Source: Escarpia spicata
Taxonomy: Eukaryota; Annelida; Polychaeta; Sabellida; Siboglinidae
Length of the DNA stretch: 64,000 bases
Direction: 5' to 3'
Assembly: GCA_963995525.1 (NCBI GenBank)
Contig: CAXEFP010000902.1
Span: 310,001 to 374,000, forward strand
Every line of letters begins with the position of its first letter. The first letter of the stretch is position 1. A program made the translations under genes and the position numbers. Below, piece by piece: positions 29,101 to 64,000 of this stretch. The notes under the pieces are model-generated. The model was given only the letters and a program-made list of their open reading frames with translations, ran no database searches and was not told the DNA's origin.

Positions 29101-30050
29101 ACGTGACGGAGATAAAACGGTAACATGCATTCCCATTTGTGGTTAATCTAGTTATGTGTGTAGCTTGATATCAGTCTAGCGTTCGTGAAGATTTGTAACA
29201 TGCAGAACATCTATTTGGGGTAAAACCACATTCAGGATCCGTCTGCCGAAAAAGTGTACTTAAAATACCGTTTTCTGTGATATGCATAAATTTTGTTCGA
29301 ACACTTTGATATGGGACATGTTTGTCTCGTGAGTACTGAATGTACTGCTGCTTTACACAATATAAAACATCAAATGTGGATGAGTTTTCACACCTACAAC
29401 TTACGTAATATGTTCTTGTAACTTACGTGACGGAGATAAAAAGGTAACATGCATTCCCATTTGTGGTTAATCTAATTATGTGTGTAGCTTGATAACAGTT
29501 TAGCCTTCGTGAAGATTTGTAACATGCAAAACATATATTTGGGGTAAGACTACATTAAGGATCCGTCCGCCAAAAAAAGTGCACTACAAATACCGTTTTG
29601 CAGTGAAATGCATAAATGTTGTTCGAACACTTTGACATGGGACATGTTTGTCTCGTGAGTACTGAACGTACTGCTCCTTTAGACAAGATAAACCATCAAA
29701 TGGGGATGAGTTTTCACACCTATAACTTACGTAATATGTTCTTGTAACTTACGTGACGGAGATAAAACGGTAACATGCATTCCCATTTGTGGTTAATCTA
29801 GTTATGTGTGTAACTTGATAGCAGGCTAGCCTTCGTGAAGATTTGTAACATGCAGAACATCTATTTGGGGTAAGACCACATTAAGGATCCGTCAGCCGAA
29901 AAAAGTGCACTACAAATACCGTTTTCTGTGATATGAATAAATGTTGTTCGAACACTTTGACATGGGACATGTTTGTCTCGTGATTATTCAATGTACTGCT
30001 GCTATAGACAACATAAAACTTCAAATGGGGATGAATTTTCACAACTGTAA

Positions 30051-47275: not shown

Positions 47276-48630
47276 ACCACATTAAGGATCCGTCCGCTGA
47301 AAAAAGTGCACTACAAATACCGTTTTGCTGTGATATGCATAAATTGTGTTCGAACACTTTGCTATGGGACATGTTTGTCTCGTGAGTACTGAATGTACTG
47401 CTGCTTTAGACAAGATAAAACATCAAATGGGGATGAGTTTTCACACTTATAACTTACGTAATATGTTCTTGTAACTTACGTGACGGAGATAAAACGGTAA
47501 CATGCATTCCCATTTGTGGTTAATCTAGTTATGTGTGTAGCTTGATATCAGTCTAGCCTTCGTGAAGTTTTGTAACCTGCAAAACATCTATTTGGGGTAA
47601 GACCACATTCAGGATCCGTCTGCCGAAAAAGTGCACTTAAAATACCGTTTTCTGTGATATGCAAAAATATTGTTCGAACACTTTGATATGGGACATGTTT
47701 GTCTCGTGAGTACTGAATGTACTGCTGCTTTAGACAAGATAAAACATCAAATGGGGATGAGTTTTCACACTTATAACTTACGTAATATGTTCTTGTAACT
47801 TACGTGACGGAGATAAAACCGTAACATGCATTCCCATTTGTGGTTAATCTAGTTATGTGTGTAGCTTGATATCAGTCTAGCCTTCGTGAAGATTTGTAAC
47901 ATGCAAAACATCTATTTGGGGTAAGACCACATTAAGGATCCGTCCGCCGAAAAAAGTGCACTACAAATACCGTTTTGCAGTGATATGCATAAATTTTGTT
48001 CGAACACTTTGACATGGGACATGTTTGTCTCGTGAGTACTGAACGTACTGCTCCTTTAGACAAGATAAAACATCAAATGGGGATGAGTTTTAACACCTAT
48101 AACTTACGTAATATGTTCTTGTAACTTACGTGACGGAGATAAAACGGTAACATGCATTCCCATTTGTGGTTAATCTAGTTATGTGTGTAGCTTGATATCA
48201 GTCTAGCCTTCGTGAAGTTTTGTAACATGCAGAACATCTATTTGGGGTAAGACCACATTCAGGATCCGTCTGCCGAAAAAGTGTACTTAAAATACCGTTT
48301 TCTGTGATATGCATACATTTTGTTGGAACACTTTGATATGGGACATGTTTGTCTCGTGAGTACTGAATGTACTGCTGCTTTAGACAATATAAAACATCAA
48401 ATGTGGATGAGTTTTCACACCTACAACTTACGTAATATGTTCTTGTAACTTACGTGACGGAGATAAAACGGTAACTTGCATTCCCATTTACGGTTAATCT
48501 AGTTATGTGTGTAGCTTGAAAACAGTCTAGCCTTCGTGAAGATTTGTAACATGCAACACATATATTTGGGGTAAGACCACATTAAGGATCCGTCCGACAA
48601 AAAAAGTGCACTACAAATACCGTTTTGCTG
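47244..48630 (+). repeat. Satellite array, block A2 (forward)
   Basis: About 4.3 monomers in the forward orientation between the palindromic junction and the inserted element. Individual units carry private changes, such as AAAACCGTAACATG near 47816 and GTCCGACAAAAAAAG near 48592. The block stops after CCGTTTTGCTG, part-way through a monomer. Confidence 0.93.
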
Positions 48631-48761
48631 AAACCGTGAATATGCATAACAGAGCTGAAGCTATTACGACACAGCGGTGACAACTATGGTGATTCCAGGT
48701 ACTATATGGTGACAAATATTTACATCAATCCAGTTTTGAGGAGCAACACATGTTAATAAAA
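48631..48761 (+). repeat. Left 131-bp inverted repeat of the insert
   Basis: Runs from AAACCGTGAATATGCATAAC to TTAATAAAA. Its reverse complement matches 49484-49614 over the whole length with scattered mismatches, clustered near the inner end (48735-48750). It includes GCTGAAGCTATTACGACAC and TGGTGACAAATATTTACATC. Confidence 0.88.
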
Positions 48762-48767
48762 GGTTTG

Positions 48768-49100
48768 CTATCCACGTCCTGCAGAGAAAGTGTAGTAGTC
48801 ATGAACATTATCCACGAACTGTAGAGACAGTGTAGTATTCATCAACACTATCCACGACATATAAAGACAGTTTAGTAGTTATGAACACTATCCACGACCT
48901 GTGGAGACATTGTAGTACTCACGAACACTATCCACGAGTTGTGGATGCAATGCAGTAGTAACGGAAAGTTTCAATGACCTGTGGAGACAGTGTAGTAGTT
49001 ATGAATACTACCCACGATCTGTGGAGACAGTGTAGTAATGAGGAACACTCTCCATGACCTGTGAAGACAGAGTAGTGGTCATGAACACTATCCACGAACA
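48768..49100 (+). repeat. 40-bp minisatellite (about 8 copies)
   Basis: TATCCACG starts at 48769, 48809, 48849, 48889 and 48929, a strict 40-base period. More diverged copies continue to about 49100. The unit reads roughly TATCCACGACCTGTGGAGAC followed by AGTGTAGTAGTTATGAACAC. About two copies in the opposite orientation follow at about 49112-49191 (GGTCGTGGACAGTG and ACACTGTCTC), so the array also folds back on itself. An open frame on the minus strand here is only the translated repeat. Confidence 0.85.
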
Positions 49101-49191
49101 ATATATATCTGAAGGTCGTGGACAGTGTTATTGACCTAAATACTGTCTCCAAACTTCGTGCATAATGTTCATGACTACAACACTGTCTCTA

Positions 49192-49360
49192 CACCATATA
49201 GTACCTGTAAGCACCATATTTGTCACCGCTGTGTCGTAACAGCTTCAGCTCTGTTATGCATACTCACGGTTTCAGCATATCCACGTTTTCATATTAGGGG
49301 AACATTATCGTAAACGGAAGGATAATGCATATACAGATATGAAATTTTACGTATATTAGG
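49192..49360 (+). repeat. Internal copy of the insert's right end (direct repeat)
   Basis: CACCATATAGTACCTGTAAG through ACGTATATTAGG at 49192-49360 matches 49534-49702 at a constant offset of 342 bases with a few substitutions. The insert therefore carries its terminal segment twice in direct orientation plus once inverted. This suggests a nested copy or an internal duplication. Confidence 0.85.
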
Positions 49361-49483
49361 AGAGTGGTATCACCCTGTTGGTGTCTTAATATAACTTACT
49401 AATAACTAATTCCCTGGACACAGTGAAAAGGCATACTCACGGTTCACTTCAAACTACCCTAAATCGGTTAGGTATCTCAAACA

Positions 49484-49614
49484 TTTTATTAACATGTCTT
49501 GTTACTAAAAACTGGATTGATGTAAATATTTGTCACCATATAGTACCTATAATCACCATAGTTGTCACCGCTGTGTCGTAACAGCTTCAGCTCTGTTATG
49601 CATACTAACGGTTT
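49484..49614 (-). repeat. Right 131-bp inverted repeat of the insert
   Basis: Begins TTTTATTAACATGTC and ends GCATACTAACGGTTT. It is the reverse complement of 48631-48761. A further 88 bases (49615-49702) continue the direct repeat but have no left partner, consistent with loss of the outermost left end. Confidence 0.88.
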
Positions 49615-49706
49615 CGGCATATCCACGGTTTCATATTAGGGGAACATTATCGTAAACGGAAGGATAATGCATATACAGATATGAAAGTTTACGTATATTA
49701 GGATAT

Positions 49707-52700
49707 TAGCTTGATATCAGTCTAGCCTTCGTGAAGATTTGTAACATGCAAAACATCTATTTGGGATAAGACCACATTACGATCCGTCCGCCCAAAAAAG
49801 TGCACTACAAATACCGTTATGCTGTAATATGCATAAATTTTGTTCAAACACTTTGATATGGGACATGGTTGTCTCGTGAGTACTGAATGTACTGCTGCTT
49901 TAGACAAGATAAAACATCAAATGGGGATGAGTTTTCACACCTATAACTTACGTAATATGTTCTTGTAACTTACGTGACGGAGATAAAACGGTAACATGCA
50001 TTCCCATTTGTGGATAATCTAGTTATGTGTGTAGCTTGATATCAGTCTAGCCTTCGTGAAGATTTGTAACATGCAGAACATCTATTTGGGGTAAGACCAC
50101 ATTCATGCCGAAAAAGTGCACTTAAAATACCGTTTTCTGTGATATGCATACATTTTGTTCGAACACTTTGATATGGGACATGTTTGTCTCATGAGTACTG
50201 AATGTACTGCTGCTTTAGACAATATAAAACATCAAATGTGGATGAGTTTTCACACCTACAACTTACGTAATATGTTCTTGTAACTTACGTGATGGAGATA
50301 AAACGGTAACATGCATTCCCATTTGTGGTTAATCTAGTTATGTGTGTAGCTTGATATCAGTCTAGCCTTCGTGAAGATTTGTAACATGCAAAACATCTAT
50401 TTGGGGTAAGACCACATTAAGGATCCGTCCGCCGAAAAAAGTGCACTACAAATACCGTTTTGCTGTGATATGCATAAATTTTGTTCGAACACTTTGATAT
50501 GGGACATGTTTGTCTCGTGAGTACTGAATGTACTGCTGCTTTAGACAAGATAAAACATCAAATGGGGATGAGTTTTCACACCTATAACTTACGTAATATG
50601 TTCTTGTAACTTACGTGACGGAGATAAAACGTTAACATGCATTCCCATTTGTGGTTAATCTAGTTATGTGTGTAGCTTGATATCAGTCTAGCCTTCGTGA
50701 AGATTTGTAACATGCAAAACATCTATTTGGGGTAAGACCACATTAAGGATCCGTCCGCTGAAAAAAGTTAACAACAAATACCGTTTTGCTGTCAAATGCA
50801 TAACTTTTGTTCGAACACTTTGATATGGGACATGTTTTTCTCGTGAGTACTGAATGCACTGCTGCTTTAGACAAGATAAAACATCAAATGGGGATGAGTT
50901 TTCACACCTATAACTTACGTAATATGTTTTTGTAACATACGTGACGGAGATAAAACGGTAACATGCATTCCCATTTGTGATTAATCTACTTATGAGTGTA
51001 GCTTGATATCAGTCTAGCCTTCGTGAAGATTTGTAACATGCAAAACATCTATTTGGGGTAAGACCACATTAAGGTTCCGTCGGCCGAAAAAAGTGCAATA
51101 CAAATACCGTTTTCTGTGATATGCATAAATTTTGTTCGAACACTTTGATATGGGACATGTTTGTCTCGTGAGTACTGAATGTACTGCTGCTATAGACAAG
51201 ATAAAACATGAAATGGGGATGAGTTTTCACACCTATAACTTACGTAATATGTTTTTGTAACTTACGTGACGGAGATAAAACGGTAACATGCATTCCCATT
51301 TGTGATTAATCTACTTATGAGTGTAGCTTGATATCAGTCTAGCCTTCGTGAAGATTTGTAACATGCAAAACATCTATTTGGGGTAAGACCACATTACGAT
51401 CCGTCCGCCCAAAAAAGTGCACTACAAATACCGTTTTGCTGTAATATGCATACATTTTGTTCGAACACTTTGATATGGGATATGGTTGTCTCGTGAGTAC
51501 TGAATGTACTGCTGGTTTAGACAAGATAAAACATCAAATGGGGATGAATTTTCACTCCTATAACTTACGTAATATGTTCTTGTAACTTACGTGACGGAGA
51601 TAAAACGGTAACATGCATTCCCATTTGTGGTTAATCTAGTTATGTGTGTAGCTTGATATCAGCCTAGCCTTCGTGAAGATTTGTAACATGCAGAACATCT
51701 ATTTGGGGTAAGACCACATTCAGGATCCGTCTGCCGAAAAAGAGCACTTAAAATACCGTTTTCTGTGATATGCATAAATTTTGTTCGAACACTTTGCTAC
51801 GGGACATGTTTGTCTCATGAGTACTGAATGTACTGCTGCTTTAGACAATATAAAACATCAAATGTGGATGAGTTTTCACACCTACAACTTACGTAATATA
51901 TTCTTGTAACTTACGTGATGGAGATAAAACAGTAACATGCATTCCCATTTGTGGTTAATCTAGTTATGTGTGTAGCTTGATATCAGTCTAGCCTTCGTGA
52001 ATATTTGTAACATGCAAAACATCTATTTGGGGTAAGACCACATTAAGGATCCGTCTGCCGAAAAAAGTGCACTACAAATACCGTTTTGCTGTGATATGCA
52101 TAAATTGTTTTCGAACACTTTGATATGGGACATGTTTGTCTCGTTAGTACTGAATGTACTGCTGCTTTAGACAATATAAAACATCAAATGGGGATGAGTT
52201 TTCACACCTATAACTTACGTAATATGTTTTCTTGTAACTTACGTGACGGAGATAAAACGTTAACATGCATTCCCATTTGTGGTTAATCTAGTTATGTGTG
52301 TAGCTTGATATCAGTCTAGCCTTCTTGAAGATTTGTAACATGCAAAACATCTATTTGGGGTAAGACCACATTAAGGATCCGTCCGCCGAAAAAAGTGCAC
52401 TACAAATACCGTTTTGCTGTGATATGCATAAATTTTGTTCGAACACTTTGATATGGGACATGTTTGTCTCGTGAGTACTGAATATACTGCTGCTTTAGAC
52501 AAGATAAAACATCAAATGGGGATGAGTTTTCACACCTATAACTTACGTAATATGTTCTTGTAACTTACGTGACGGAGATAAAACGTTAACATGCATTCCC
52601 ATTTGTGGTTAATCTAGTTATGTGTGTAGCTTGATATCAGTCTAGCCTTCGTGAAGATTTGTAACATGCAAAACATCTATTTGGGGTAAGACCACATTAA

Positions 52701-55700
52701 GGATCCGTCCGCTGAAAAAAGTGAACAACAAATACCGTTTTGCTGTGATATGCATACATTTTGTTCGAACACTTTGATATGGGACATGTTTGTCTCGTGA
52801 GTACTGAATGTACTGCTGCTTTAGACAAGATAAAACATCAAATGGGGATCAGTTTTCACACCTATAACTTACGTAATATGTTTTTGTAACTTACGTGACG
52901 GAGATAAAACGTTAACACGCATTCCCATTTGTGGTTAATCTAGTTATGTGTGTAGCTTGATATCATACTAGCCTTCGTGAAGATTTGTAACATGCAGAAC
53001 ATCTATTTGGGGTAAGACCACCTTCAGGATCCGTCTGCCGAAAAAGTGCACTTAAAATACCGTTTTCTGTGATATGCATAAATTTTGTTCGAACACTTTG
53101 ATATGGGACATGTTTGTCTCGTGAGTACTGAATGCACTGCTGCTTTAGACAAGATAAAACATCAAATGGGGATGAGTTTTCACACCTATAACTTACGTAA
53201 TATGTTCTTGTAACTTATGTGACGGAGATAAATCGGTAACATGCATTCCCATTTGTGGTTAATCTAGTTATGTGTGGAGCTTGATATCAGTCTAGCCTTT
53301 GTGAAGATTTGTAACATGCAAAACATCTATTTGGGGTAAGACCACATTAAGGATCCGTCCGCCGAAAAAAGTGAACTACAAATACCGTTTTGCTGTGATA
53401 TGCATACATTTTGTTCGAACACTTTGATATGGGACATGTTTGTCTCGCGAGTACTGAATGTACTGCTGCTTTAGACAAGATAAAACATCAAATGGGGATG
53501 AGTTTTCATACCTATAACTTACGTAATATGTTCTTGTAACTTATGTGACGGAGATAAATCGGTAACATGCATTCCCATTTGTGGTTAATCTAGTTATGTG
53601 TGTAGCTTGATATCAGTCTAGCCTTTGTGAAGATTTGTAACATGCAAAACATATATTTGGGGTAAGACCACATTACGATCAGTCCGCCCAAAAAAGTGCA
53701 CTACAAATACCGTTTTGCTGTAATATGCATAACTTTTGTTCGAACACTTTGATATGGGACATGGTTGTCTCGTGAGTACTGAATGTACTGCTGCTTTAGA
53801 CAAGATAAAACATCAAATGGGGATGAGTTTTCACACTTATAACTTACGTAATATGTTCTTGTAACTTACGTGACGGAGATAAAACGGTAACATGCATTCC
53901 CATTTGTGGTTAATCTAGTTATGTGTGTAGCTTGATATCAGTCTAGCCTTCGTGAATATTTGTAACATGCAAAACATCTATTTGGGGTAAGACCACATTA
54001 AGGATCCGTCCGCCGAAAAATGTGCACTGCAAATACCGTTTTGCTGTGATATGCATACATTTTTTTCGAACACTTTGATATGGGACATGTTTGTCTCGTG
54101 AGTACTGAATGTACTGCTGCTTTAGACAATATAAAACATCAAATGGGGATGAGTTTTCACACCTATAACTTACGTAATATGTTTTCTTGTAACTTACGTG
54201 ACGGAGATAAAACGTTAACATGCATTTCCATTTGTGGTTAATCTAGTTATGTGTGTAGCTTGATATCAGTCTAGCCTTCGTGAAGATTTGTAACATGCAA
54301 AACATCTATTTGGGTTAAGACCACATTAAGGATCCGTCCGTTAGAAAAAAGTGCACTACAAATACCGTTTTGCTGTGATGTGCATGAATTTTGTTCGAAC
54401 ACTTTGATATGGGACATGTTTGTCTCGTGAGTACTGAATGCACTGCTGCTTTAGACAAGATAAAACATCAAATGGGGATGAGTTTTCACACCTATAACTT
54501 ACGTAATATGTTCTTGTAACTTATGTGACGGAGATAAATCGGTAACATGCATTCCCATTTGTGGTTAATCTAGTTATGTGTGTAGCTTGATATCAGTCTA
54601 GCCTTTGTGAAGATTTGTAACATGCAAAACATCTATTTGGGGTAAGACCACATTAAGGATCCGTCCGCCGAAAAAAGTGCACTACAAATACCGTTTTGCT
54701 GTGATATGCATACATTTTGTTCGAACACTTTGATATGGGACATGTTTGTCTCGCGAGTACTGAATGTACTGCTGCTTTAGACAAGATAAAACATCAAATG
54801 GGGATGAGTTTTCACACCTATAACTTACGTAATATGTTCTTGTAAGTTATGTGACGGAGATAAATCGGTAACATGCATTCCCATTTGTGGTTAATCTAGT
54901 TATGTGTGTAGCTTGATATCAGTCTAGCCTTTGTGAAGATTTGTAACATGCAAAACATATATTTGGGGTAAGACCACATTACGATCAGTCCGCCCAAAAA
55001 AGTGCCCTACAAATACCGTTTTGCTGTAATATGCATAACTTTTGTTCGAACACTTTGATATGGGACATGGTTGTCTCGTGAGTACTGAATGTACTGCTGC
55101 TTTAGACAAGATAAAACATCAAATGGGGATGAGTTTTCACACTTATAACTTACGTAATATGTTCTTGTAACTTACGTGACGGAGATAAAACGGTAACATG
55201 CATTCCCATTTGTGGTTAATCTAGTTATGTGTGTAACTTGATATCAGTCTAGCCTTCGTGAATATTTGTAACATGCAAAACATATATTTGGGGTAAGACC
55301 ACATTAAGGATCCGTCCGCCGAAAAATGTGCACTGCAAATACCGTTTTGCTGTGATATGCATACATTTTTTTCGAACACTTTGATATGGGACATGTTTGT
55401 CTCGTGAGTACTGAATGTACTGCTGCTTTAGACAATATAAAACATCAAATGGGGATGAGTTTTCACACCTATAACTTACGTAATATGTTTTCTTGTAACT
55501 TACGTGACGGAGATAAAACGTTAACATGCATTTCCATTTGTGGTTAATCTAGTTATGTGTGTAGCTTGATATCAGTCTAGCCTTCGTGAAGATTTGTAAC
55601 ATGCAAAACATCTATTTGGGTTAAGACCACATTAAGGATCCGTCCGTTAGAAAAAAGTGCACTACAAATACCGTTTTGCTGTGATGTGCATGAATTTTGT

Positions 55701-58700
55701 TCGAACACTTTGATATGGGACATGTTTGTCTCGTGAGTACTGAATGCACTGCTGCTTTAGACAAGATAAAACATCAAATGGGGATGAGTTTTCACACCTA
55801 TAACTTACGTAATATGTTCTTGTAACTTATGTGACGGAGATAAATCGGTAACATGCATTCCCATTTGTGGTTAATCTAGTTATGTGTGTAGCTTGATATC
55901 AGTCTAGCCTTTGTGAAGATTTGTAACATGCAAAACATCTATTTGGGGTAAGACCACATTAAGGATCCGTCCGCCGAAAAAAGTGCACTACAAATACCGT
56001 TTTGCTGTGATATGCATACATTTTGTTCGAACACTTTGATATGGGACATGTTTGTCTCGCGAGTACTGAATGTACTGCTGCTTTAGACAAGATAAAACAT
56101 CAAATGGGGATGAGTTTTCACACCTATAACTTACGTAATATGTTCTTGTAAGTTATGTGACGGAGATAAATCGGTAACATGCATTCCCATTTGTGGTTAA
56201 TCTAGTTATGTGTGTAGCTTGATATCAGTCTAGCCTTTGTGAAGATTTGTAACATGCAAAACATATATTTGGGGTAAGACCACATTACGATCAGTCCGCC
56301 CAAAAAAGTGCCCTACAAATACCGTTTTGCTGTAATATGCATAACTTTTGTTCGAACACTTTGATATGGGACATGGTTGTCTCGTGAGTACTGAATGTAC
56401 TGCTGCTTTAGACAAGATAAAACATCAAATGGGGATGAGTTTTCACACTTATAACTTACGTAATATGTTCTTGTAACTTACGTGACGGAGATAAAACGGT
56501 AACATGCATTCCCATTTGTGGTTAATCTAGTTATGTGTGTAGCTTGATATCAGTCTAGCCTTCGTGAATATTTGTAACATGCAAAACATATATTTGGGGT
56601 AAGACCACATTAAGGATCCGTCCGCCGAAAAATGTGCACTGCAAATACCGTTTTGCTGTGATATGCATACATTTTTTTCGAACACTTTTATATGGGACAT
56701 GTTTGTCTCGTGAGTACTGAATGTACTGCTGCTTTAGACAATATAAAACATCAAATGGGGATGAGTTTTCACACCTATAACTTACGTAATATGTTTTCTT
56801 GTAACTTACGTGACGGAGATAAAACGTTAACATGCATTTCCATTTGTGGTTAATCTAGTTATGTGTGTAGCTTGATATCAGTCTAGCCTTCGTGAAGATT
56901 TGTAACATGCAAAACATCTATTTGGGTTAAGACCACATTAAGGATCCGTCCGTTAGAAAAAAGTGCACTACAAATACCGTTTTGCTGTGATGTGCATGAA
57001 TTTTGTTCGAACACTTTGATATGGGACATGTTTGTCTCGTGAGTACTGAATGCACTGCTGCTTTAGACAAGATAAAACATCAAATGGGGATGAGTTTTCA
57101 CACCTATAACTTACGTAATATGTTCTTGTAACTTATGTGACGGAGATAAATCGGTAACATGCATTCCCATTTGTGGTTAATCTAGTTATGTGTGTAGCTT
57201 GATATCAGTCTAGCCTTTGTGAAGATTTGTAACATGCAAAACATCTATTTGGGGTAAGACCACATTAAGGATCCGTCCGCCGAAAAAAGTGCACTACAAA
57301 TACCGTTTTGCTGTGATATGCATACATTTTGTTCGAACACTTTGATATGGGACATGTTTGTCTCGCGAGTACTGAATGTACTGCTGCTTTAGACAAGATA
57401 AAACATCAAATGGGGATGAGTTTTCACACCTATAACTTACGTAATATGTTCTTGTAACTTATGTGACGGAGATAAATCGGTAACATGCATTCCCATTTGT
57501 GGTTAATCTAGTTATGTGTGTAGCTTGATATCAGTCTAGCCTTTGTGAAGATTTGTAACATGCAAAACATATATTTGGGGTAAGACCACATTACGATCAG
57601 TCCGCCCAAAAAAGTGCACTACAAATACCGTTTTGCTGTAATATGCATAACTTTTGTTCGAACACTTTGATATGGGACATGGTTGTCTCGTGAGTACTGA
57701 ATGTACTGCTGCTTTAGACAAGATAAAACATCAAATGGGGATGAGTTTTCACACTTATAACTTACGTAATATGTTCTTGTAACTTACGTGACGGAGATAA
57801 AACGGTAACATGCATTCCCATTTGTGGTTAATCTAGTTATGTGTGTAGCTTGATATCAGTCTAGCCTTCGTGAATATTTGTAACATGCAAAACATATATT
57901 TGGGGTAAGACCACATTAAGGATCCGTCCGCCGAAAAATTTGCACTGCAAATACCGTTTTGCTGTGATATGCATACATTTTTTTCGAACACTTTGATATG
58001 GGACATGTTTGTCTCGTGAGTACTGAATGTACTGCTGCTTTAGACAATATAAAACATCAAATGGGGATGAGTTTTCACACCTATAACTTACGTAATATGT
58101 TTTCTTGTAACTTACGTGACGGAGATAAAACGTTAACATGCATTTCCATTTGTGGTTAATCTAGTTATGTGTGTAGCTTGATATCAGTCTAGCCTTCGTG
58201 AAGATTTGTAACATGCAAAACATCTATTTGGGTTAAGACCACATTAAGGATCCGTCCGCTAGAAAAAAGTGCACTACAAATACCGTTTTGCTGTGATGTG
58301 CATGAATTTTGTTCGAACACTTTGATATGGGACATGTTTGTCTCGTGAGTACTGAATGCACTGCTGCTTTAGACAAGATAAAACATCAAATGGGGATGAG
58401 TTTTCATACCTATAACTTACGTAATATGTTTTTGTAACTTACGTGACGGAGATAAAACGGTAACAGGCATTCCCATTTGAGATTAATCTACTGATGAGTG
58501 TAGCTTGATATCAGTCTAGCCTTCGTGAAGTTTTGTAACCTGCAAAACATCTATTTGGGGTAAGACCACATTAAGGATCCGTCCGCCGAAAAAAGTGCAC
58601 TACAAATACCGTTTTCTGTGATATGCATAAATTGTGTTCGAACACTTTGACATGGGACATGTTTGTCTCGTGAGTACTGAATGTACTGCTGCTTTACACA

Positions 58701-60241
58701 ATATAAAACATCAAATGTGGATGAGTTTTCACACCTACAACTTACGTAATATGTTCTTGTAACTTACGTGACGGAGATAAAACGGTAACATGCATTCCCA
58801 TTTGTGGTTAATCTAATTATGTGTGTAGCTTGATAACAGTTTAGCCTTCGTGAATATTTGTAACATGCAAAACATATATTTGGGGTAAGACTACATTAAG
58901 GATCCGTCCGCCAAAAAAAGTGCACTACAAATACCGTTTTGCAGTGAAATGCATAAATGTTGTTCGAACACTTTGACATGGGACATGTTTGTCTCGTGAG
59001 TACTGAACGTACTGCTCCTTTAGACAAGATAAACCATCAAATGGGGATGAGTTTTCACACCTATAACTTACGTAATATGTTCTTGTAACTTACGTGACGG
59101 AGATAAAACGGTAACATGCATTCCCATTTGTGGTTAATCTAGTTATGTGTGTAATTTGATATCAGGCTAGCCTTCGTGAAGATTTGTAACATGCAGAACA
59201 TCTATTTGGGGTAAGACCACATTAAGGATCCGTCAGCCGAAAAAAGTGCACTACAAATACCGTTTTCTGTTATATGAATAAATGTTGTTCGAACACTTTG
59301 ACATGGGACATGTTTGTCTCGTGATTATTCAATGTACTGCTGCTATAGACAACATAAAACATCAAATGGGGATGAATTTTCACAACTGTAACTTACGTAA
59401 TATTTTCTTGTAACTTACGTGACGGATATAAAACGGTAACATGCATTCCCATTTGTGGTTAATCTAGTTATGTGTGTAGCTTGATATCAGTCTAGCCTTC
59501 ATGAAGATTTGTAACATGCAAAATATCTATTTGGGGTAAGACCACATTAAGGATCCGTCCGCCGAAAAAAGTGCACTACAAATACCGTTTTGCAGTGATA
59601 TGCATAAATTTTGTTCGAACACTTTGATATGGGACATGTTTGTCTCGTGAGTACTGAACGTACTGCTCCTTTAGACAAGATAAAACATCAAATGGGGATG
59701 AGTTTTCACACCTATAACTTACGTAATATGTTCTTGTAACTTACGTGACGGAGATAAAACGGTAACATGCATTCCCATTTGTGATTAATCTAGTTATGTG
59801 TGTAGCTTGATATCAGTCTAGCCTTCGTGAAGATTTGTAACATGCAAAACATATATTTGGGGTAAGACCACATTAAGGATCCGTCCGCCGAAAAAAGTGC
59901 ACTACAAATACCGTTTTGCTGTGATATGCATACATTTTGTTCGAACACTTTGATATGGGACATGTTTGTCTCGTGAGTACTGAATGTACTGCTGCTATAG
60001 ACAAGATAAAACATGAAATGGGGATGAGTTTTCACACCTATAACTTACGTAATATGTTCTTGTAACTTATGTGACGGAGATAAAACGGTAACATGCATTC
60101 CCATTTGTGGTTAATCTAATTATGTGTGTAGCTTGATAACAGTCTAGCCTTCGTGAAGATTTGTAACATGCAAAACATATATTTGGGGTAAGACTACATT
60201 AAGGATCCGTCCGCCAAAAAAGTGCACTACAAATACCGTTT
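49707..60241 (+). repeat. Satellite array, block A3 (forward)
   Basis: About 32 monomers in forward orientation from TAGCTTGATATCAG to ACCGTTT. Between about 49.7 and 53 kb the monomers are mixed without clear longer periodicity. From about 53 to 58.4 kb a 4-monomer unit dominates. From 58.4 to 60.2 kb the types resemble those of the 13-15 kb region (for example GATAACAGTTTAGCC and GATTATTCAATGTACTG). One monomer (50101-50110) lacks the BamHI site through a short deletion of roughly ten bases. The block ends abruptly at retroelement DNA. Confidence 0.95.
53085..58405 (+). repeat. Higher-order repeat, 4 monomers (1306 bp), about 4 copies
   Basis: Equivalent points lie at 53618, 54924, 56230 and 57536, exactly 1306 bases apart. 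Private markers recur in step: CATTTTTTTCGAAC, GTCCGTTAGAAAAAAG (GTCCGCTAG in the last copy), ATGTTTTCTTGTAAC, and GATCAGTCCGCCCAAAAAAG. Copies are nearly identical. These markers are absent from the 4-mer at 361-4240, so the two units arose independently. Confidence 0.85.
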
Positions 60242-60999
60242 AATGTGGCTGCAAAAAGCCTAGGATGTTGGTTAACCTGTTGTCCATTGTTACCCTTGTC
60301 AGGGATGGTTGGAGAGGGACTAGGGCAATGACGTGAATCCGTCCTAACTGGCGTGCCAGTCATACGCTGTGTGGACCTTTGAGATGGCGGTGGTCCGGAA
60401 GGTGGGGTTATTGGTACTGTTGTAGGTCCGGAGGGGGGCTTTGTTGAATCTCCATGTCCTACTTTCCTGGGAAGGGGCGACGATTTATGCTTAATTGTGA
60501 GGCCATTAGAGCGAGAGACTAGTTTTACGCAATCGTCCCGATGGGATCTGTTGATCGAGGGTCGGTTGTGGCTACAGAGGTGGCCCGGCCGTCGTCCCAC
60601 AAAGTTCCGTTTTAGGGGTGCTCCTATCTTCTTCGTTGGCAGAGGTTGTACTTTGGGGGGTGTTGCTGCCACTGTCGAGTACAGTGGTTTCGCGATTGTC
60701 GCGCTAGTTGCTGAATTGTCACTGATCCTGGGTGGAGTTGGAGTGGAATTTGATTCCGGTGTCCTTGTAATAATATTCCTGGGTTTTGGTGTTGGGGGCA
60801 GTGGAGAAGGGGACATTGATAACTCCAGGAAGCGGTTTCTTGGATTGATTGGCGTGACAAGGGGGGTTGGCATGGTGTCATCTTTCCCCTGCGGACCTGC
60901 CGGGCTTGTGTTGTCGATGGGTACTGGAATGGGGCGATTAGGGGACGAGGTCCGGGGAGTGGGTATTCGTTTACGACGGGCTGGGGTCGGTTTTGGCAT
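60199..60999 (-). pseudogene. Proline-rich ORF fused by readthrough into satellite
   Basis: Minus-strand open frame of 266 codons. The N-terminal 250 or so residues are rich in Pro, Ser, Thr and basic residues (for example TPARRKRIPTPRTSSPNRP), with no folded domain that I recognise; it looks like a disordered, possibly nucleic-acid-binding tail. The last residues, after LFAATLN, are translated satellite, because retroelement DNA ends at 60242. The frame stays open upstream of its first ATG to the run of seven C at 61031-61037 (minus-strand sense). There it lies one base out of frame with the end of the NADAR-like ORF. I infer that it was the C-terminal tail of that protein, separated by a one-base indel (one C too many) and truncated by the satellite junction. 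Confidence 0.55.
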
Positions 61000-61015
61000 A
61001 GGGGGTGTTGGCGGC

Positions 61016-62128
61016 TCAGGAATTGAGGGCGGGGGGGCCTTGTGATTTGCTCTTTCTCCAAAGGTTAGTTGAAATTAGTTGAATGCCCCAGTAAGGGTGC
61101 ACGCAATGGTCTATGAAATTAGTTTTCCCTGAGTTGAGGATCCTGTTGGAAAACTCCGGTACATGATTTAACTTCCATATGAGAATCTCCCATAACTTAT
61201 TTTCGGCGTGGCGATACCACCCGCCCAAATCGGTTGGGAACTGGCGTGTTATCCTGTGGACTTCCTCTGCTGTTTTTGCAGCAAAGATTGCGTCCGCTAG
61301 GTGGTCTTGGTCAAGGTAGATCGCCTGGGCAAACGGTAGGGCGTGCGTCCCCGATGCGAAGGAGGCATTATCAAAGGAATTAGGTAGGCTAATTTCGCAC
61401 AGATAATCGTTGCTAGCCGGGTCCATGTTATTGGTGATGTTCCTTAGATACTGTTCACTGTTTGTGAATTGCGGGGTATCCCGATTTTGTCTGAAGATCG
61501 GTTTGGTTGATCCGGGGACCAAGGTTGGTCTAGTTAGGTTGTGGGTATACCGCGGGGCCGGATAGTATGATCCCTTATTTCCCCGGGTATTCTCATGTCT
61601 GGGTGCTGTATGGGAGGAGTTACCTTGAGGTATCCTATTATTTTCCTTTCTGAGATCGTTCGTGTGCCGACCGGAGCCCAAGTTTCTGATCATGTTTGAG
61701 AACTTCGTAACTGTACTGGTATTTAGTTTATTACCAAAGTTTCGCTTACCCCATTGTAGGGCAGTTTGTTTTGCAGAAAGGACATTTTCTTTTGATATGT
61801 ACGTTCCAGCAAGGGTGTCCGTGATTCGGTTAAGCGTGGTTTGGTAATGGTTTAGCATTATCTTCCCCATACCAGTAGCCCATGCTAGGTTTGCTTGTCT
61901 GATGTCTCTTCTGACAGAGTTGTCAGGTCTGGCTGGGCGGACAAACTTGTCCAGATGGCTAGTTTTCCTCTCAAATGCTTTTGATGGGTTCCCCCCGGCT
62001 TGTTCTTTAGCTACCCCGATATGGTGTAACAACTGCAGTACTTGGTAAAACATTTTAGCGAACGAACTACCACCACCAATCTTACCATCTCCCTCTTTAA
62101 CTACGCGTGGACGGTTTTTACCGAGCAT
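61016..62128 (-). CDS. Retroelement-associated ORF with NADAR-like (YbiA/DUF1768) domain
   Basis: 370 codons from ATG, with an in-frame TGA five codons upstream supporting this start. Residues 55-150 look helical and basic (LDKFVRPARPD, then NLAWATGMGKIM and ALQWGKRNFGNKL) and could be a nucleic-acid-binding or assembly region. Residues 155-220 are low-complexity and rich in Asn, Arg and Pro. Residues about 238-350 resemble NADAR: SGTHALPFAQAIYLDQDHL, then AIFAAKTAEEVHRITR, W304, and WKLNHVPEFSNRILNSG leading to HPYWG at 344-348. This is the order expected for NADAR proteins, which act on or bind ADP-ribose-type metabolites. The usual SxEH motif reads SGTH here, so the acidic residue appears replaced and activity is doubtful. 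A promoter and ribozyme candidate lie directly upstream on the same strand. Domain assignment is by eye. Confidence 0.7.
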   Translation of the reverse strand: MLGKNRPRVVKEGDGKIGGGSSFAKMFYQVLQLLHHIGVAKEQAGGNPSKAFERKTSHLDKFVRPARPDNSVRRDIRQANLAWATGMGKIMLNHYQTTLNRITDTLAGTYISKENVLSAKQTALQWGKRNFGNKLNTSTVTKFSNMIRNLGSGRHTNDLRKENNRIPQGNSSHTAPRHENTRGNKGSYYPAPRYTHNLTRPTLVPGSTKPIFRQNRDTPQFTNSEQYLRNITNNMDPASNDYLCEISLPNSFDNASFASGTHALPFAQAIYLDQDHLADAIFAAKTAEEVHRITRQFPTDLGGWYRHAENKLWEILIWKLNHVPEFSNRILNSGKTNFIDHCVHPYWGIQLISTNLWRKSKSQGPPALNS

Positions 62129-62240
62129 CTCTAAATCTAATCAGCTAAGAACTACTAAACATTAAGTAAAACGCACAAAATATTACAATCAAAAATTACT
62201 TTAAACGATATATGGTAAAAAAAACTCCTCACTCTTTAAG

Positions 62241-62279
62241 ATACCAACATGTTTCGACGAGATGTCTTCATCAGGGTAT
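62241..62279 (-). ncRNA. Candidate hammerhead ribozyme (PLE type, short stem III)
   Basis: On the minus strand the core CTGATGA (62268-62274) is followed by A, a 3-bp stem II (GAC/GTC, 62256-62258 with 62264-62266) with loop ATCTC, then GAAA (62252-62255). Next is ACATGT and a GTT cleavage triplet, with predicted scission between 62246 and 62245. Stem I pairs TACC-flanking bases: GGTAT (62241-62245) with ATACC (62275-62279), 5 bp. Stem III is only 2 bp over a 2-base loop, but its ACATGT is self-complementary, as in hammerheads thought to act as dimers. One extra A between CTGATGA and stem II departs from the strict consensus and could weaken it. Confidence 0.6.
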
Positions 62280-62316
62280 ATAAAAAAATATATCCTAACG
62301 TTGGGTAGAATTTCGT

Positions 62317-62328
62317 CCGTATATATAG
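62317..62328 (-). promoter_or_regulatory. TATA-like box for the NADAR ORF
   Basis: The minus strand reads CTATATATACGG here. It lies about 190 bases upstream of the ORF start and about 40 bases upstream of the ribozyme candidate. Initiation about 30 bases downstream (near 62293) would put the ribozyme at the very 5' end of the transcript, the arrangement expected for a PLE leader. Motif match only. Confidence 0.45.
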
Positions 62329-62368
62329 GGGTTGAAAAGGGGTTAGTTAGGTTTAGGTAGGTGATCTT

Positions 62369-62373
62369 ATTGG
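62369..62373 (-). promoter_or_regulatory. CCAAT-like box
   Basis: The minus strand reads GACCAATAAG about 45 bases upstream of the TATA-like box, a normal spacing for a CCAAT element of an RNA polymerase II promoter. A five-base motif alone is weak evidence. Confidence 0.35.
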
Positions 62374-62439
62374 TCAAAATTTGTTTTCGGCACGGTCATG
62401 TGATTCTAACGTCCACCCTTAAATAATACAATTACCCCG

Positions 62440-62559
62440 ATGGATAAATGGCTTCTGAGGGCTGGTCTGTCGGTACATGAAGCGTGGCGGAGCGGGTCGA
62501 TTGATAATGGGCTAATCCACGCTGGCTTCCCCGGCCCGGGGAACAAAGGGATCGGATGA
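62440..62559 (+). pseudogene. Possible frame-shifted upstream part of the PLE RT ORF
   Basis: An ATG-initiated frame of 39 codons (MDKWLLRAGL...) ends at TGA in GGATGA. Its last residues, GNKGIG, followed after the stop by IV in the same frame, resemble the DKGG-hydrophobic motif that normally precedes the RQL...Y segment in PLE reverse transcriptases. The downstream RT frame differs by one base and is preceded directly by TAG (62564-62566). I infer the RT N-terminus is damaged here by a stop and a one-base shift. The first 30 or so codons are not recognisable and may be unrelated DNA. Confidence 0.3.
62527..62543. repeat. Perfect 17-base GC-rich palindrome
   Basis: TTCCCCGG-C-CCGGGGAA is an exact inverted repeat around a single C. 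It stands out in AT-rich surroundings and lies in the interval where the two opposed element fragments must meet. Confidence 0.8.
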
Positions 62560-62566
62560 ATAGTAG

Positions 62567-64000
62567 GTGGCCGAATCTATTGTGTTCAAAATTAATGAGG
62601 TACATCGACAATTAAATAACACCACTCACTACACCCCCCTCTCACAACCGGTCTACCCGGAGGCCAGTAAGAAAATAGGGACGATACTCCACCAAATTAA
62701 AATATCTGGCTACATTACACATAAGCAATTAAATTACCTCATACCACCAAACGAACCTAGACAGAGACAATTATATATATTACCTAAAATTAACAAACCA
62801 CGCAACAAATGGCCCCAACCGGACATTATGCCCCCTGGTCGACCCATCATTTCCGATTGTGGTTCAGAATCATACAGGGTCGCTGAATATATAGACTCAT
62901 TCTTAGTCCCCCTATCAATAACACACGCATCTTTTGTTAAAAACACCACAGATTTCCTAGATAAAATAACCCAGATTATTTCCCCAGCAAATAGTATGTT
63001 ATTTACCATGGATGTAGAAAGTCTCTACACAAATATTGACAATACGACAGGCCTAGCAGCCGTAAAACTAGCTTTCGACAAATCGCCAGACTTAGACCGC
63101 CCAGATAAGGAAATCCTAGAGTTATTGGAATAATCACTTAAATATAACGATTTCCAATTTGATTCAGATTGCTATCTGCAGATTCATGGCACTGCTATGG
63201 GAAAATTTTTTGCCCCCAATTACGCAAACATTTTCATGGCAGATTGGGAAGAAAAAGCGTTAGCAAAATGCACTAAATTACCAGCTATATATCTTAGATA
63301 TCTAGATGATATATTCGGTATTTGGACACATGGAGAATTGGAATTTAATAAATTTCTAGACACATTAAACAGTCACCATCCTAGTATTAGATGGACTTCT
63401 GAAACAAGCTACGATTCGGTTAATTTTCTTGATACTACAATTTTCAAAGGGGACCGCTTTAATAAAACGGGGCGCCTAGACAGCAAAGTATTTTTCAAAC
63501 CAACGGATACCCATCAACTACTACATAAGGAATCATTCCATCCAAAACACACATTTTCAGGAATCCTAAAATCACAAATATTACGGTTTCATCGCATCTG
63601 CAACAATAAGGACGATTTTGAATTAGCCACTAAAATTCTATTCGACAGCCTAAGGGAAAGGAACTATAGCAACAGATTTTTACGATTTGTGAAAAACGAA
63701 ACACTCAGTAATATCAAAAACAACAACAGAAAGGAAGCGGCAGCACCTTGTCACGGAGCCCATTGCAATACATGCGCCCACTTCATAGACTTCTCACCTT
63801 CTGCGACACCTGCCGCTAATTACAACACGTGCGGCACGCAAAATGTGATATACCTAATCAGCTGCGATATATGCCCAGCCACATATATAGGAGAAACGGG
63901 CAATACTCTACGAACACGCGTGAACCAACATAGATCAGATATTTTACATAATAATGATACAGCAGTTTCTAAACATTTTAACCTCCCTAATCACTGTTGG
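62567..64000 (+). pseudogene. Penelope-like element reverse transcriptase with GIY-YIG endonuclease (5'-damaged, one stop, runs off window)
   Basis: Taking 62567 (GTG, not a credible start) as codon 1, the frame is open except for TAA at 63131-63133 (codon 189), then open to the window end at codon 478. Motifs in order: EVHRQLNNTTHY (11-22); YILPKINKPRNKW (70-82) and GRPIISDCGS (91-100), the PLE fingers; motif A TMDVESLYTNI with D149; motif B HGTAMGKFFAPNYANIFM (207-224); motif C YLRYLDDIF with D247 and D248; thumb-like KPTDTHQLLH (311-320) and SQILRFHRIC (336-345). A Cys cluster C395-X4-C400-X2-C403 precedes VIYLISC (427-433) and YIGETGNTLRTRVNQH (440-455), the GIY-YIG endonuclease. All RT catalytic aspartates remain. 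The stop sits between motifs A and B, where one substitution could create TAA. This is an EN+ PLE; the clade is not assigned. Confidence 0.92.
63749..64000 (+). other. Cys cluster and GIY-YIG nuclease domain (partial)
   Basis: Codons 395-478 of the PLE frame. Cys residues at 395, 400, 403, 422, 433 and 436 suggest metal binding around the nuclease start. VIY and YIG segments are spaced 11 residues apart, and conserved Arg residues (449, 451) and H455 follow. In PLEs this domain nicks target DNA for integration. The domain's expected downstream Glu lies beyond the window edge, so completeness cannot be judged. Confidence 0.85.

What the first reader, a model, noticed from the sequence alone, without database searches (positions are those of the whole stretch)
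61016..62128. NADAR-like domain encoded in a retroelement-type ORF
A 370-codon ORF adjoining a PLE, with retroelement-like promoter and ribozyme, ends in what looks like a NADAR fold (FAQAIYLDQDHLADAI ... VPEFSNRILNSG ... HPYWG). NADAR proteins are known for acting on or binding ADP-ribose and NAD-derived metabolites, so a mobile element carrying one could be countering host ADP-ribosylation or using it for localisation. The SGTH in place of the usual SxEH suggests a binding rather than catalytic role. I cannot say whether this pairing has been described.
Basis: partly seen in the sequence, partly recalled or inferred. Interest (0 to 1): 0.78.

Follow-up and report, generated by a model that had tools for sequence, protein, structure and literature searches.

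The report
Telomere-linked retroelement carrying a NADAR-like protein
The odd open frame is a broken copy of the first gene of a mobile genetic element (a Penelope-like retroelement), and intact copies elsewhere in the genome show that this gene joins a NADAR-like domain to an esterase-like part, sits beside the reverse transcriptase gene, and belongs to an element that may be able to attach to chromosome ends.

Summary
The NADAR-like frame is real, on the minus strand (61016-62128). This copy is damaged: about 20 residues at the domain's end are gone, and satellite DNA cuts it off at 60242. Head to head on the other strand lies a 5'-truncated reverse-transcriptase (RT) piece of the same element.

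Copies elsewhere in the host genome settle what it is. On contigs C158 and C995 an intact 6,568-bp Penelope-like element (PLE) has, on one strand: a minimal type I hammerhead ribozyme; ORF1 (825 aa: basic N-terminal part, NADAR-like domain, proline-rich stretch, SGNH-like part); and ORF2 (PLE RT plus GIY-YIG). ORF2 overlaps ORF1 at an in-phase T TTA AAC slippery site. A second family (RT 65% identical) has the same layout.

The NADAR part is under purifying selection (dN/dS 0.21, one pair of copies), but its SxEH glutamate is threonine in all eight proteins aligned, so I favour binding over catalysis.

A telomere-like tract follows ORF2. Two of 40 scored 3' ends, possibly one event, run from it into (CCCTAA)n arrays, as in rotifer Terminons, although this element keeps its endonuclease.

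NADAR in retroelements and esterase in PLE ORF1 are published. My searches listed no paper on NADAR in a PLE.

The parts
61016..62128 (-). ORF1 fragment of the PLE, 370 codons; frame broken near the end of the NADAR domain
   Evidence: 348/348 residues identical to P0003 up to HPYWG
61679..62128 (-). N-terminal part of ORF1, residues 1-150, basic (pI 10.7 in P0003); no Pfam match in this copy; dN/dS 0.22 between two other copies
61064..61408 (-). NADAR-like domain, residues 241-355 (SGTH in place of SxEH); its last ~20 residues are missing in this copy
   Evidence: Pfam PF08719 E 3.5e-6; comparison with P0003
60199..61074 (-). continuation of ORF1 in another frame: proline-rich stretch; its last codons (below about 60242) are satellite
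   Evidence: BLASTP to P0001 E 6e-15; 290/291 identical to P0003
62129..62592 (-). 5' leader / pseudo-LTR of the PLE upstream of ORF1; the homology to C158 covers window 60243-62592
   Evidence: 92.3% identity to C158 over a 2,401-column alignment
62241..62279 (-). minimal type I hammerhead ribozyme motif (stem I 5 bp, stem II 3 bp, stem III 1 bp plus the A-U pair)
   Evidence: the same 39 nt upstream of ORF1 in 7 of 8 element stretches scanned, one of the seven being this very site in L011
62320..62327 (-). TATATATA, candidate TATA box about 40 nt upstream of the ribozyme
   Evidence: read from sequence; also in C158 (sequence printed)
62593..62593 (.). head-to-head junction between the inverted pLTR-ORF1 piece and the 5'-truncated ORF2 piece
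   Evidence: blastn blocks meet here; the same junction in L012 and L049
62594..64000 (+). 5'-truncated ORF2 of the same PLE family: RT with YLDD motif, Cys-rich motif and GIY-YIG domain; in-frame stop at 63131-63133; runs past the window
   Evidence: 96.2% to C158 10634-12040; GIY-YIG 23.6 bits over cut-off 22.6
60242..60242 (.). junction where the 326-bp satellite cuts ORF1 off just before its SGNH-like part
   Evidence: TRF array 49707-60241; homology to C158 starts at 60243

Best explanation
The ORF is a damaged copy of ORF1 of a two-ORF Penelope-like element. The full element is a 6,568-bp unit found head to tail. Its RNA would start at a TATA box, carry a minimal type I hammerhead ribozyme, and encode ORF1 (basic N-terminal part, NADAR-like domain, proline-rich stretch, SGNH esterase-like part) and ORF2 (PLE RT plus GIY-YIG endonuclease). 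ORF2 has no early ATG and is most likely made by -1 ribosomal frameshifting at T TTA AAC, as an ORF1-ORF2 fusion (inferred). The RNA's 3' part holds a telomere-like C-rich tract that can pair with the G-rich telomeric overhang, so that reverse transcription can start at chromosome ends (inferred from two junctions that may be one event). The NADAR-like domain is kept by selection but lacks the SxEH glutamate; its most likely role is as a binding module of the ORF1 RNP protein, not as a hydrolase (inferred). The window holds a rearranged head-to-head piece of this element that was multiplied together with a 326-bp satellite (inferred from the copies). Sub-claims: ORF1 of a PLE 0.97; conserved non-catalytic NADAR module 0.65; -1 frameshift 0.75; telomere-primed 3' end 0.6.
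For: Own-genome search: 68 P0003 match rows (67 of 1,581 first-look candidates scored). C158 and C995: ORF1 and ORF2 open, frames overlapping by 64 nt on one strand; two C158 units 6,568 bp apart, 100% identical over the 7,111 bp aligned. C1 and C2: decayed copies with the same order and strand. Second family on C254: same ORF1 layout, 33% identity over 885 columns; ORF2 with GIY-YIG over cut-off and RVT_1 below it. Hammerhead identical upstream of ORF1 in 7 of 8 stretches scanned, one of them the window's own site; C1, the eighth, has lost its 5' part. dN/dS, C158 against C369: N-terminal part 0.22 (p 0.002), linker 0.31, NADAR 0.21 (p 0.0005), proline-rich stretch 0.99, whole shared ORF1 0.55. 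TTTAAAC in ORF1 phase in C158, C995 and C1, and at the matching place in both C254 copies (phase worked out from the printed coordinates). Telomere-like tract in 8 loci read; two 3' ends run from it into arrays of 2,082 bp and at least 2,442 bp. SGNH-like part: PF13472 E 5e-4 and 3.3e-5, both below cut-off; GDSN, PGA, GIN and DxxH seen by eye. SxEH Glu is Thr in all eight element proteins aligned.
Against: Among 68 ORF1 match rows, the nearest same-family RT within 6 kb is on the OPPOSITE strand in 55, on the same in 6, absent in 7 (59 of the 136 RT rows were used, the 77 more distant ones dropped). I read the 55 as one rearranged block copied with the satellite, because 38 share one spacing, but besides the window only L012 and L049 of them were read. 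The esterase match is below Pfam's cut-off; with the whole C995 ORF1 the known LINE ORF1 esterase does not appear among PDB matches, and whole P0004 gave none. C995's GIY-YIG is just below cut-off. C158 and C995 are 99.9% identical, so their two telomere junctions may be one event; 38 of 40 scored 3' ends do not stop at the tract; the tract pattern was not found in the C1 and C2 stretches. The RNA fold after the slippery site is unremarkable. dN/dS rests on one pair of copies; C158 against C995 had no synonymous change. No structure could be predicted and no PLE reference tree was made.
Confidence: 0.8

Rival explanations
1. The NADAR module is still an enzyme: it removes ADP-ribose or a related group from the element's nucleic acid or RNP and so counters host ADP-ribosylation.
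For: The domain is under purifying selection (dN/dS 0.21). Residues aligned to YbiA H49, R86, W89 and W133 are invariant. Asp replaces the second catalytic Glu in 3 of 6 element proteins. In the E. [quoted passage not shown]
Against: The SxEH Glu is Thr in all eight element proteins aligned. The Lys is absent in 5 of 6 and the second acid is Asn or Phe in 3 of 6. In the C7 enzyme Lys95 and Asp171 are needed for activity, and E88 changes abolished rescue.
Confidence: 0.15
2. The NADAR-like ORF belongs to another element, such as a Tx1-type LINE, and its place beside a PLE in the window is accidental.
For: NADAR domains are reported in Crassostrea Tx1 LINE ORF1 (PMC12477816). In the window the two pieces are on opposite strands, as in 55 of 68 match rows.
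Against: C158 (two units), C995, C1, C2 and C254 hold this ORF1 directly before a PLE ORF2 on the same strand.
Confidence: 0.02
3. The telomere-like tract and the arrays are coincidental: the element landed in subtelomeric DNA, and recombination between telomere-like tracts joined it to telomeric arrays.
For: Only 2 of 40 scored 3' ends meet an array, possibly from one event. The element keeps its own endonuclease. Satellite and arrays are mixed in this region.
Against: Both junctions start at the same base inside the tract, and the array orientation, (CCCTAA)n on the sense strand, is the one that telomere priming predicts. The second family has its own tract at the matching place, and a separate hammerhead-bearing 1,048-bp repeat also runs into (TAACCC)n.
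Confidence: 0.33
4. The ORF is a domesticated host gene that the element merely flanks.
For: Purifying selection.
Against: Multicopy, tandem with RT, shares ribozyme and leader with it, and overlaps ORF2 at a slippery site.
Confidence: 0.01

Closest known systems
Penelope-like elements with GIY-YIG endonuclease (Penelope/Poseidon type; PAc in PMC11167929, passages seen)
   Same: RT plus GIY-YIG, head-to-tail copies with pseudo-LTRs, hammerhead near the ORF start
   Different: the passages describe one PAc ORF; here there are two overlapping ORFs with a -1 slippery site, ORF1 carries NADAR-like and SGNH-like parts, and a telomere-like tract follows ORF2
Penelope-like elements whose ORF1 has an SGNH esterase (Schneider et al. 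2013, PMC3905857; section 12 read, other passages)
   Same: SGNH esterase in ORF1 of a PLE
   Different: what was seen names no NADAR domain; which Repbase elements they are was not seen
Terminons / Athena (PMC6431247, section 8 read; PMC5408684, passages)
   Same: PLE RT, GDSL esterase as accessory function, hammerhead, reverse-complement telomeric repeats at the 3' end, chains at telomeres
   Different: Terminons are described as endonuclease-deficient (some carry separate GIY-YIG-like ORFs), up to 40 kb, with the telomeric tract immediately downstream of the hammerhead; here GIY-YIG is in the RT ORF, the unit is 6.6 kb, and the hammerhead lies about 700 bp past the tract
Ectocarpus Gypsy Pol NADAR and oyster Tx1 LINE ORF1 NADAR (PMC12477816, passages)
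   Same: NADAR domain captured by a retroelement
   Different: LTR element and LINE, not PLE; whether their catalytic residues are kept was not seen
NADAR/YbiA enzymes (E. coli YbiA; solved chain 8bau, whose identity as the Phytophthora protein is recalled)
   Same: family by profile; W, R and G positions kept
   Different: SxEH Glu, usually the Lys and often the second acid are lost

Membership tests
NADAR domain (PF08719) | profile match over the curated cut-off | tested here: met
   met for the C995 intact copy (38.3 bits against 35.1) and P0001-P0005; not met for the damaged window copy (27.8) nor for C254 (31.6)
NADAR domain (PF08719) | catalytic Glu of SxEH and the following Lys | tested here: not met
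   Thr in all eight element proteins aligned; Lys in 1 of 6, P0002
NADAR domain (PF08719) | three-dimensional NADAR fold | not testable with these tools
Penelope-like element | PLE-type RT joined to a GIY-YIG endonuclease in one ORF | tested here: met
   window GIY-YIG 23.6 bits over cut-off 22.6; C254 ORF2 GIY-YIG 28.6 over cut-off, RVT_1 22.7 below its cut-off 29.6; C995 GIY-YIG 20.9, just below; that the RT is PLE-type rests on recalled motifs
Penelope-like element | head-to-tail copies with pseudo-LTRs | tested here: met
   C158 units 6,568 bp apart, 100% identical over 7,111 bp
Penelope-like element | minimal type I hammerhead | tested here: met
   described for PLEs in PMC7761336 (passages)
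Penelope-like element | RT placed within the PLE clade by phylogeny | not tested
   no reference RT set at hand
Terminon / Athena | telomere-complementary tract at the 3' end, joined to telomeric arrays | tested here: met
   tract in 8 loci read; joined to an array in 2 of 40 scored 3' ends, possibly one event
Terminon / Athena | no endonuclease domain in the RT ORF | tested here: not met
   GIY-YIG present
Terminon / Athena | hammerhead immediately upstream of the telomeric tract | tested here: not met
   tract at C158 6837, hammerhead core at 7534, downstream of it
SGNH/GDSL esterase | profile match and the S, G, N, D/H catalytic blocks | tested here: inconclusive
   PF13472 E 5e-4 and 3.3e-5, both below cut-off; blocks GDSN, PGA, GIN, DDIHW by eye; for a piece of P0004 a weak hit to 4c1b 'ORF1-encoded protein', E 0.19; no such hit with whole ORF1s
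-1 ribosomal frameshift site | X XXY YYZ heptamer in phase within an overlap, plus a stimulatory structure | tested here: inconclusive
   heptamer met in both families and in the C1 copy; structure unremarkable

The most novel reading that the evidence does not exclude
The NADAR-like module is a targeting device. NADARs recognise ADP-ribosylated guanine, and this element may prime on G-rich telomeric overhangs, so the non-catalytic module would read ADP-ribose marks on telomeric DNA or shelterin (made by PARPs or tankyrases; recalled) and bring the PLE RNP to chromosome ends. This would be a telomere-homing retroelement that keeps its endonuclease for internal sites and uses a captured ADP-ribose reader for ends.
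Probability: 0.1. Interest if true: 0.88.

Novelty: new variant of a known kind. Interest (0 to 1): 0.66.

Why it matters
It gives the NADAR domain, whose role in animals is described as unclear (PMC11125620, passages), a concrete and testable setting: a selected but apparently non-catalytic module in the ORF1 protein of a retroelement. It may also bridge two kinds of PLE that are usually kept apart: endonuclease-bearing elements and endonuclease-free, telomere-attaching Terminons. An endonuclease-bearing PLE with a telomere-like 3' tract joined to telomeric arrays, and a likely -1 frameshift between ORF1 and ORF2, would bear on how PLEs, relatives of telomerase, came to use chromosome ends.

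Tried and rejected
Tx1 LINE as the source of the ORF: rejected once intact copies were read. A bacterial origin suggested by the label 'Chromatiales bacterium' on P0001: set aside, because relatives are multicopy in this 1.06-Gb genome. Programmed frameshifting at the C7 run near 61035: rejected, because comparison with P0003 shows a short loss at the end of the NADAR domain instead. Rfam at gathering and relaxed thresholds did not report the hammerhead; a direct structural scan did. Scans of viral contigs and genome contigs gave no relatives. Short inverted repeats between the NADAR ORF and the RT side were judged chance. A phage search with P0003 gave one weak NADAR match, E 0.2. Chromosome ends could not be read, and the genome-wide count of telomere junctions was not made.

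Full report
WHAT IS IN THE WINDOW. About 60 kb of the window is a 326-bp satellite, with a 1.1-kb insert. The last 3.8 kb holds two pieces of one retroelement. On the minus strand, 60243-62592 is the leader, the hammerhead and part of ORF1, 92.3% identical to an intact copy on contig C158. On the plus strand, 62594-64000 is a 5'-truncated piece of ORF2, 96.2% identical to the same copy. The finding's 370-codon frame is the first part of ORF1. Its NADAR match is real but sub-threshold here (27.8 bits against 35.1). P0003, identical over 348 residues, has 20 further residues before the proline-rich tail; the window lacks them and carries the tail in another frame. ORF2 has an in-frame stop at 63131-63133. 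As read, the window copy is broken in both ORFs.

WHAT THE INTACT ELEMENT LOOKS LIKE. The window lies in an unnamed 1.06-Gb genome of 1,097 contigs. A search with P0003 gave 68 match rows, with 67 of 1,581 first-look candidates scored; some copies give two rows. On C158 two units lie head to tail 6,568 bp apart, 100% identical over the 7,111 bp aligned, with the start of a third; one unit was read on C995. Each unit reads, on one strand: TATATATA, minimal hammerhead, ORF1 (825 aa from its ATG), ORF2 (757-codon open frame), 3' region, telomere-like tract. C1 and C2 hold decayed copies in the same order and strand. A second family on C254 was found through a 65% identical RT. One copy there shows an 896-codon ORF1 frame; the copy before it shows a shortened ORF1 followed by a 744-codon ORF2 frame on the same strand. 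The ORF1 matches NADAR (E 2.4e-7) and Lipase_GDSL_2 (E 3.3e-5), both below cut-off; the ORF2 matches GIY-YIG over cut-off and RVT_1 below it. The two families' ORF1s are 33% identical over 885 columns.

STRAND COUNT, FOR AND AGAINST. I took 59 of the 136 RT rows (the same family and its close decayed copies; the 77 rows of other RT families were dropped; that search scored 135 of 1,956 candidates). Of the 68 ORF1 rows, the nearest such RT within 6 kb is on the same strand in 6, on the opposite strand in 55, and absent in 7. At face value this is against a shared element. But 38 of the 55 have exactly the same 1,009-bp spacing, and the 55 lie on six contigs (C166, C369, C396, C732, C881, C1020). 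The two of them read besides the window itself, in L012 and L049, repeat the window's head-to-head junction and its satellite cut. I read them as one rearranged block multiplied with the satellite. The three intact units read are same-strand.

RIBOZYME. A structural scan (CTGANGA core, stem II of at least 3 bp, GAA-A, stem III of at least 1 bp, UH, stem I of at least 5 bp) found one site in the window and none in 100 Markov windows of 64 kb. The same 39 nt precede ORF1 in 7 of 8 element stretches scanned, one of the seven being the window's own site; C1, the eighth, has lost its 5' part. PLEs are known for minimal type I hammerheads (PMC7761336, passages).

ORF1 DOMAINS AND SELECTION. The N-terminal 150 residues are basic (pI 10.7 in P0003) and have no significant Pfam match; RNA binding is inferred only. 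Between the C158 and C369 copies, dN/dS is 0.22 in the N-terminal part (p 0.002), 0.31 in the linker, 0.21 in the NADAR domain (p 0.0005), 0.99 in the proline-rich stretch (p 1) and 0.55 overall (Fisher tests on rounded counts). This is one pair of copies; C158 against C995 had no synonymous change and tells nothing. The SGNH-like part has the four motif blocks by eye and sub-threshold Pfam matches. A piece of P0004 has a weak best PDB match to 4c1b, 'ORF1-encoded protein' (E 0.19; that this is the ZfL2-1 esterase is recalled), but whole P0004 and whole C995 ORF1 do not match it. Schneider et al. report SGNH esterases in ORF1 of Penelope-like elements (PMC3905857, section 12 read).

NADAR CATALYTIC RESIDUES. 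In the alignment with E. coli YbiA the Glu of SxEH is Thr in all six element proteins shown; the window and P0003 agree, eight proteins in all. The Lys is kept only in P0002 (1 of 6). The second acid is Asp in three, Asn in two and Phe in C254. Residues aligned to YbiA H49, R86, W89, W133 and the glycines after it are kept. In the E. coli C7 NADAR the Lys and the second acid are needed for activity, while loss of the first Glu had a minor in-vitro effect but abolished rescue (PMC11543638, passages). I therefore favour a non-catalytic, selected binding module. The ligand is not known. The nematode SNA-3 protein shows that animal NADAR domains can serve RNA machinery (PMC9303266, passages).

ORF1-ORF2 JOIN. 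The ORF2 frame overlaps ORF1 by 64 nt in the -1 frame, and its first Met comes about 174 codons in. The overlap holds T TTA AAC in ORF1 phase, ending one codon before the ORF1 stop, in C158 and C995. It is kept in the decayed C1 copy, directly before a stop, and at the matching place in both C254 copies, where the phase follows from the printed coordinates. A -1 frameshift making an ORF1-ORF2 fusion is the simplest reading. The RNA fold downstream is not striking.

TELOMERE LINK. The units on C158 and C995 and the satellite-block copies read (L011, L012, L013, L048, L049) have AATCTTAAGGGCTAACCC followed by further telomere-like bases after ORF2; the pattern was not found in the C1 and C2 stretches. 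The C254 family has its own version between one ORF2 and the next ORF1. A 441-bp query over the 3' end gave 40 scored matches of 67 candidates. Thirty-eight match to the query's last base; of the tracts read, eight go on into the leader. Two stop three bases earlier, at query base 438. Both of these, on C995 and in the third C158 unit, run into pure (CCCTAA)n, 2,082 bp and at least 2,442 bp. The sense-strand orientation is what priming of RT on a TTAGGG overhang would leave. Because C158 and C995 are 99.9% identical, this may be one event; I lowered this sub-claim to 0.6 for that. A separate 1,048-bp hammerhead-bearing repeat also runs into (TAACCC)n on C254. Terminons are described as doing the same without an endonuclease (PMC6431247, section 8 read).

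WHAT IS KNOWN. NADAR in retroelements is in print for Ectocarpus Gypsy and oyster Tx1 LINEs (PMC12477816, passages). Searches for 'NADAR domain', NADAR with Penelope (20 of 29 papers listed), with retrotransposon and with transposable element, YbiA with retroelement, DUF1768 with transpos, Penelope-like with ADP-ribose, and Penelope with SGNH and ORF1 listed no paper that, from its listing, describes NADAR in a PLE; most listed papers were not opened. Key PLE papers were not held, so 'not described' holds only for the library searched.

VERDICT. What lies behind it is a PLE lineage with a NADAR-SGNH ORF1, a likely -1 frameshift and a possibly Terminon-like 3' end: a new variant of a known kind.

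Noticed in passing
L003-L010 (G000 loci): The best NADAR matches in the genome (150 scored of 1,673 candidates, all 150 over cut-off) include frames that keep SxEH; in the three loci read (L003-L005) they lie beside a P-loop ATPase-like frame and other frames, like a large virus-like DNA element (Maverick/Polinton type, recalled, untested).
   Followed up: partly
window 9-60241: 326-bp satellite with higher-order periods (2,276 and 6,179 bp in the left array, 1,306 bp in the right) and an orientation switch near 30,050.
   Followed up: partly
window 48626-49707: About 1.1-kb non-satellite insert with 142-nt inverted arms (92% complementary) and a 40-bp minisatellite inside.
   Followed up: no
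C158:3901-6325, L051 (C158 end), L052:1-3890: A 1,048-bp tandem repeat with another hammerhead-like core (CTGATGAGACTTTAATAGTCGAAACGCGTA) and its own telomere-like tract; on C254 it runs into (TAACCC)n and then satellite-like sequence.
   Followed up: partly
C158:1-3920 (L043): The contig starts with about 650 (CCCTAA) units, followed by the 1,048-bp repeat and then the PLE units, whose 5' ends face the array.
   Followed up: partly
contigs C166, C369, C396, C732, C881, C1020: A rearranged head-to-head PLE block appears to have been multiplied with the satellite into dozens of near-identical copies, many with the cut-off ORF1 still open.
   Followed up: partly
P0001: A protein of this eukaryotic element family is labelled 'Chromatiales bacterium' in the public data: probable contamination of a bacterial MAG.
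   Followed up: no
RT hits: Further PLE RT matches, 46-72% identical, lie across the chromosomes; only C254 was checked for a NADAR ORF1.
   Followed up: partly
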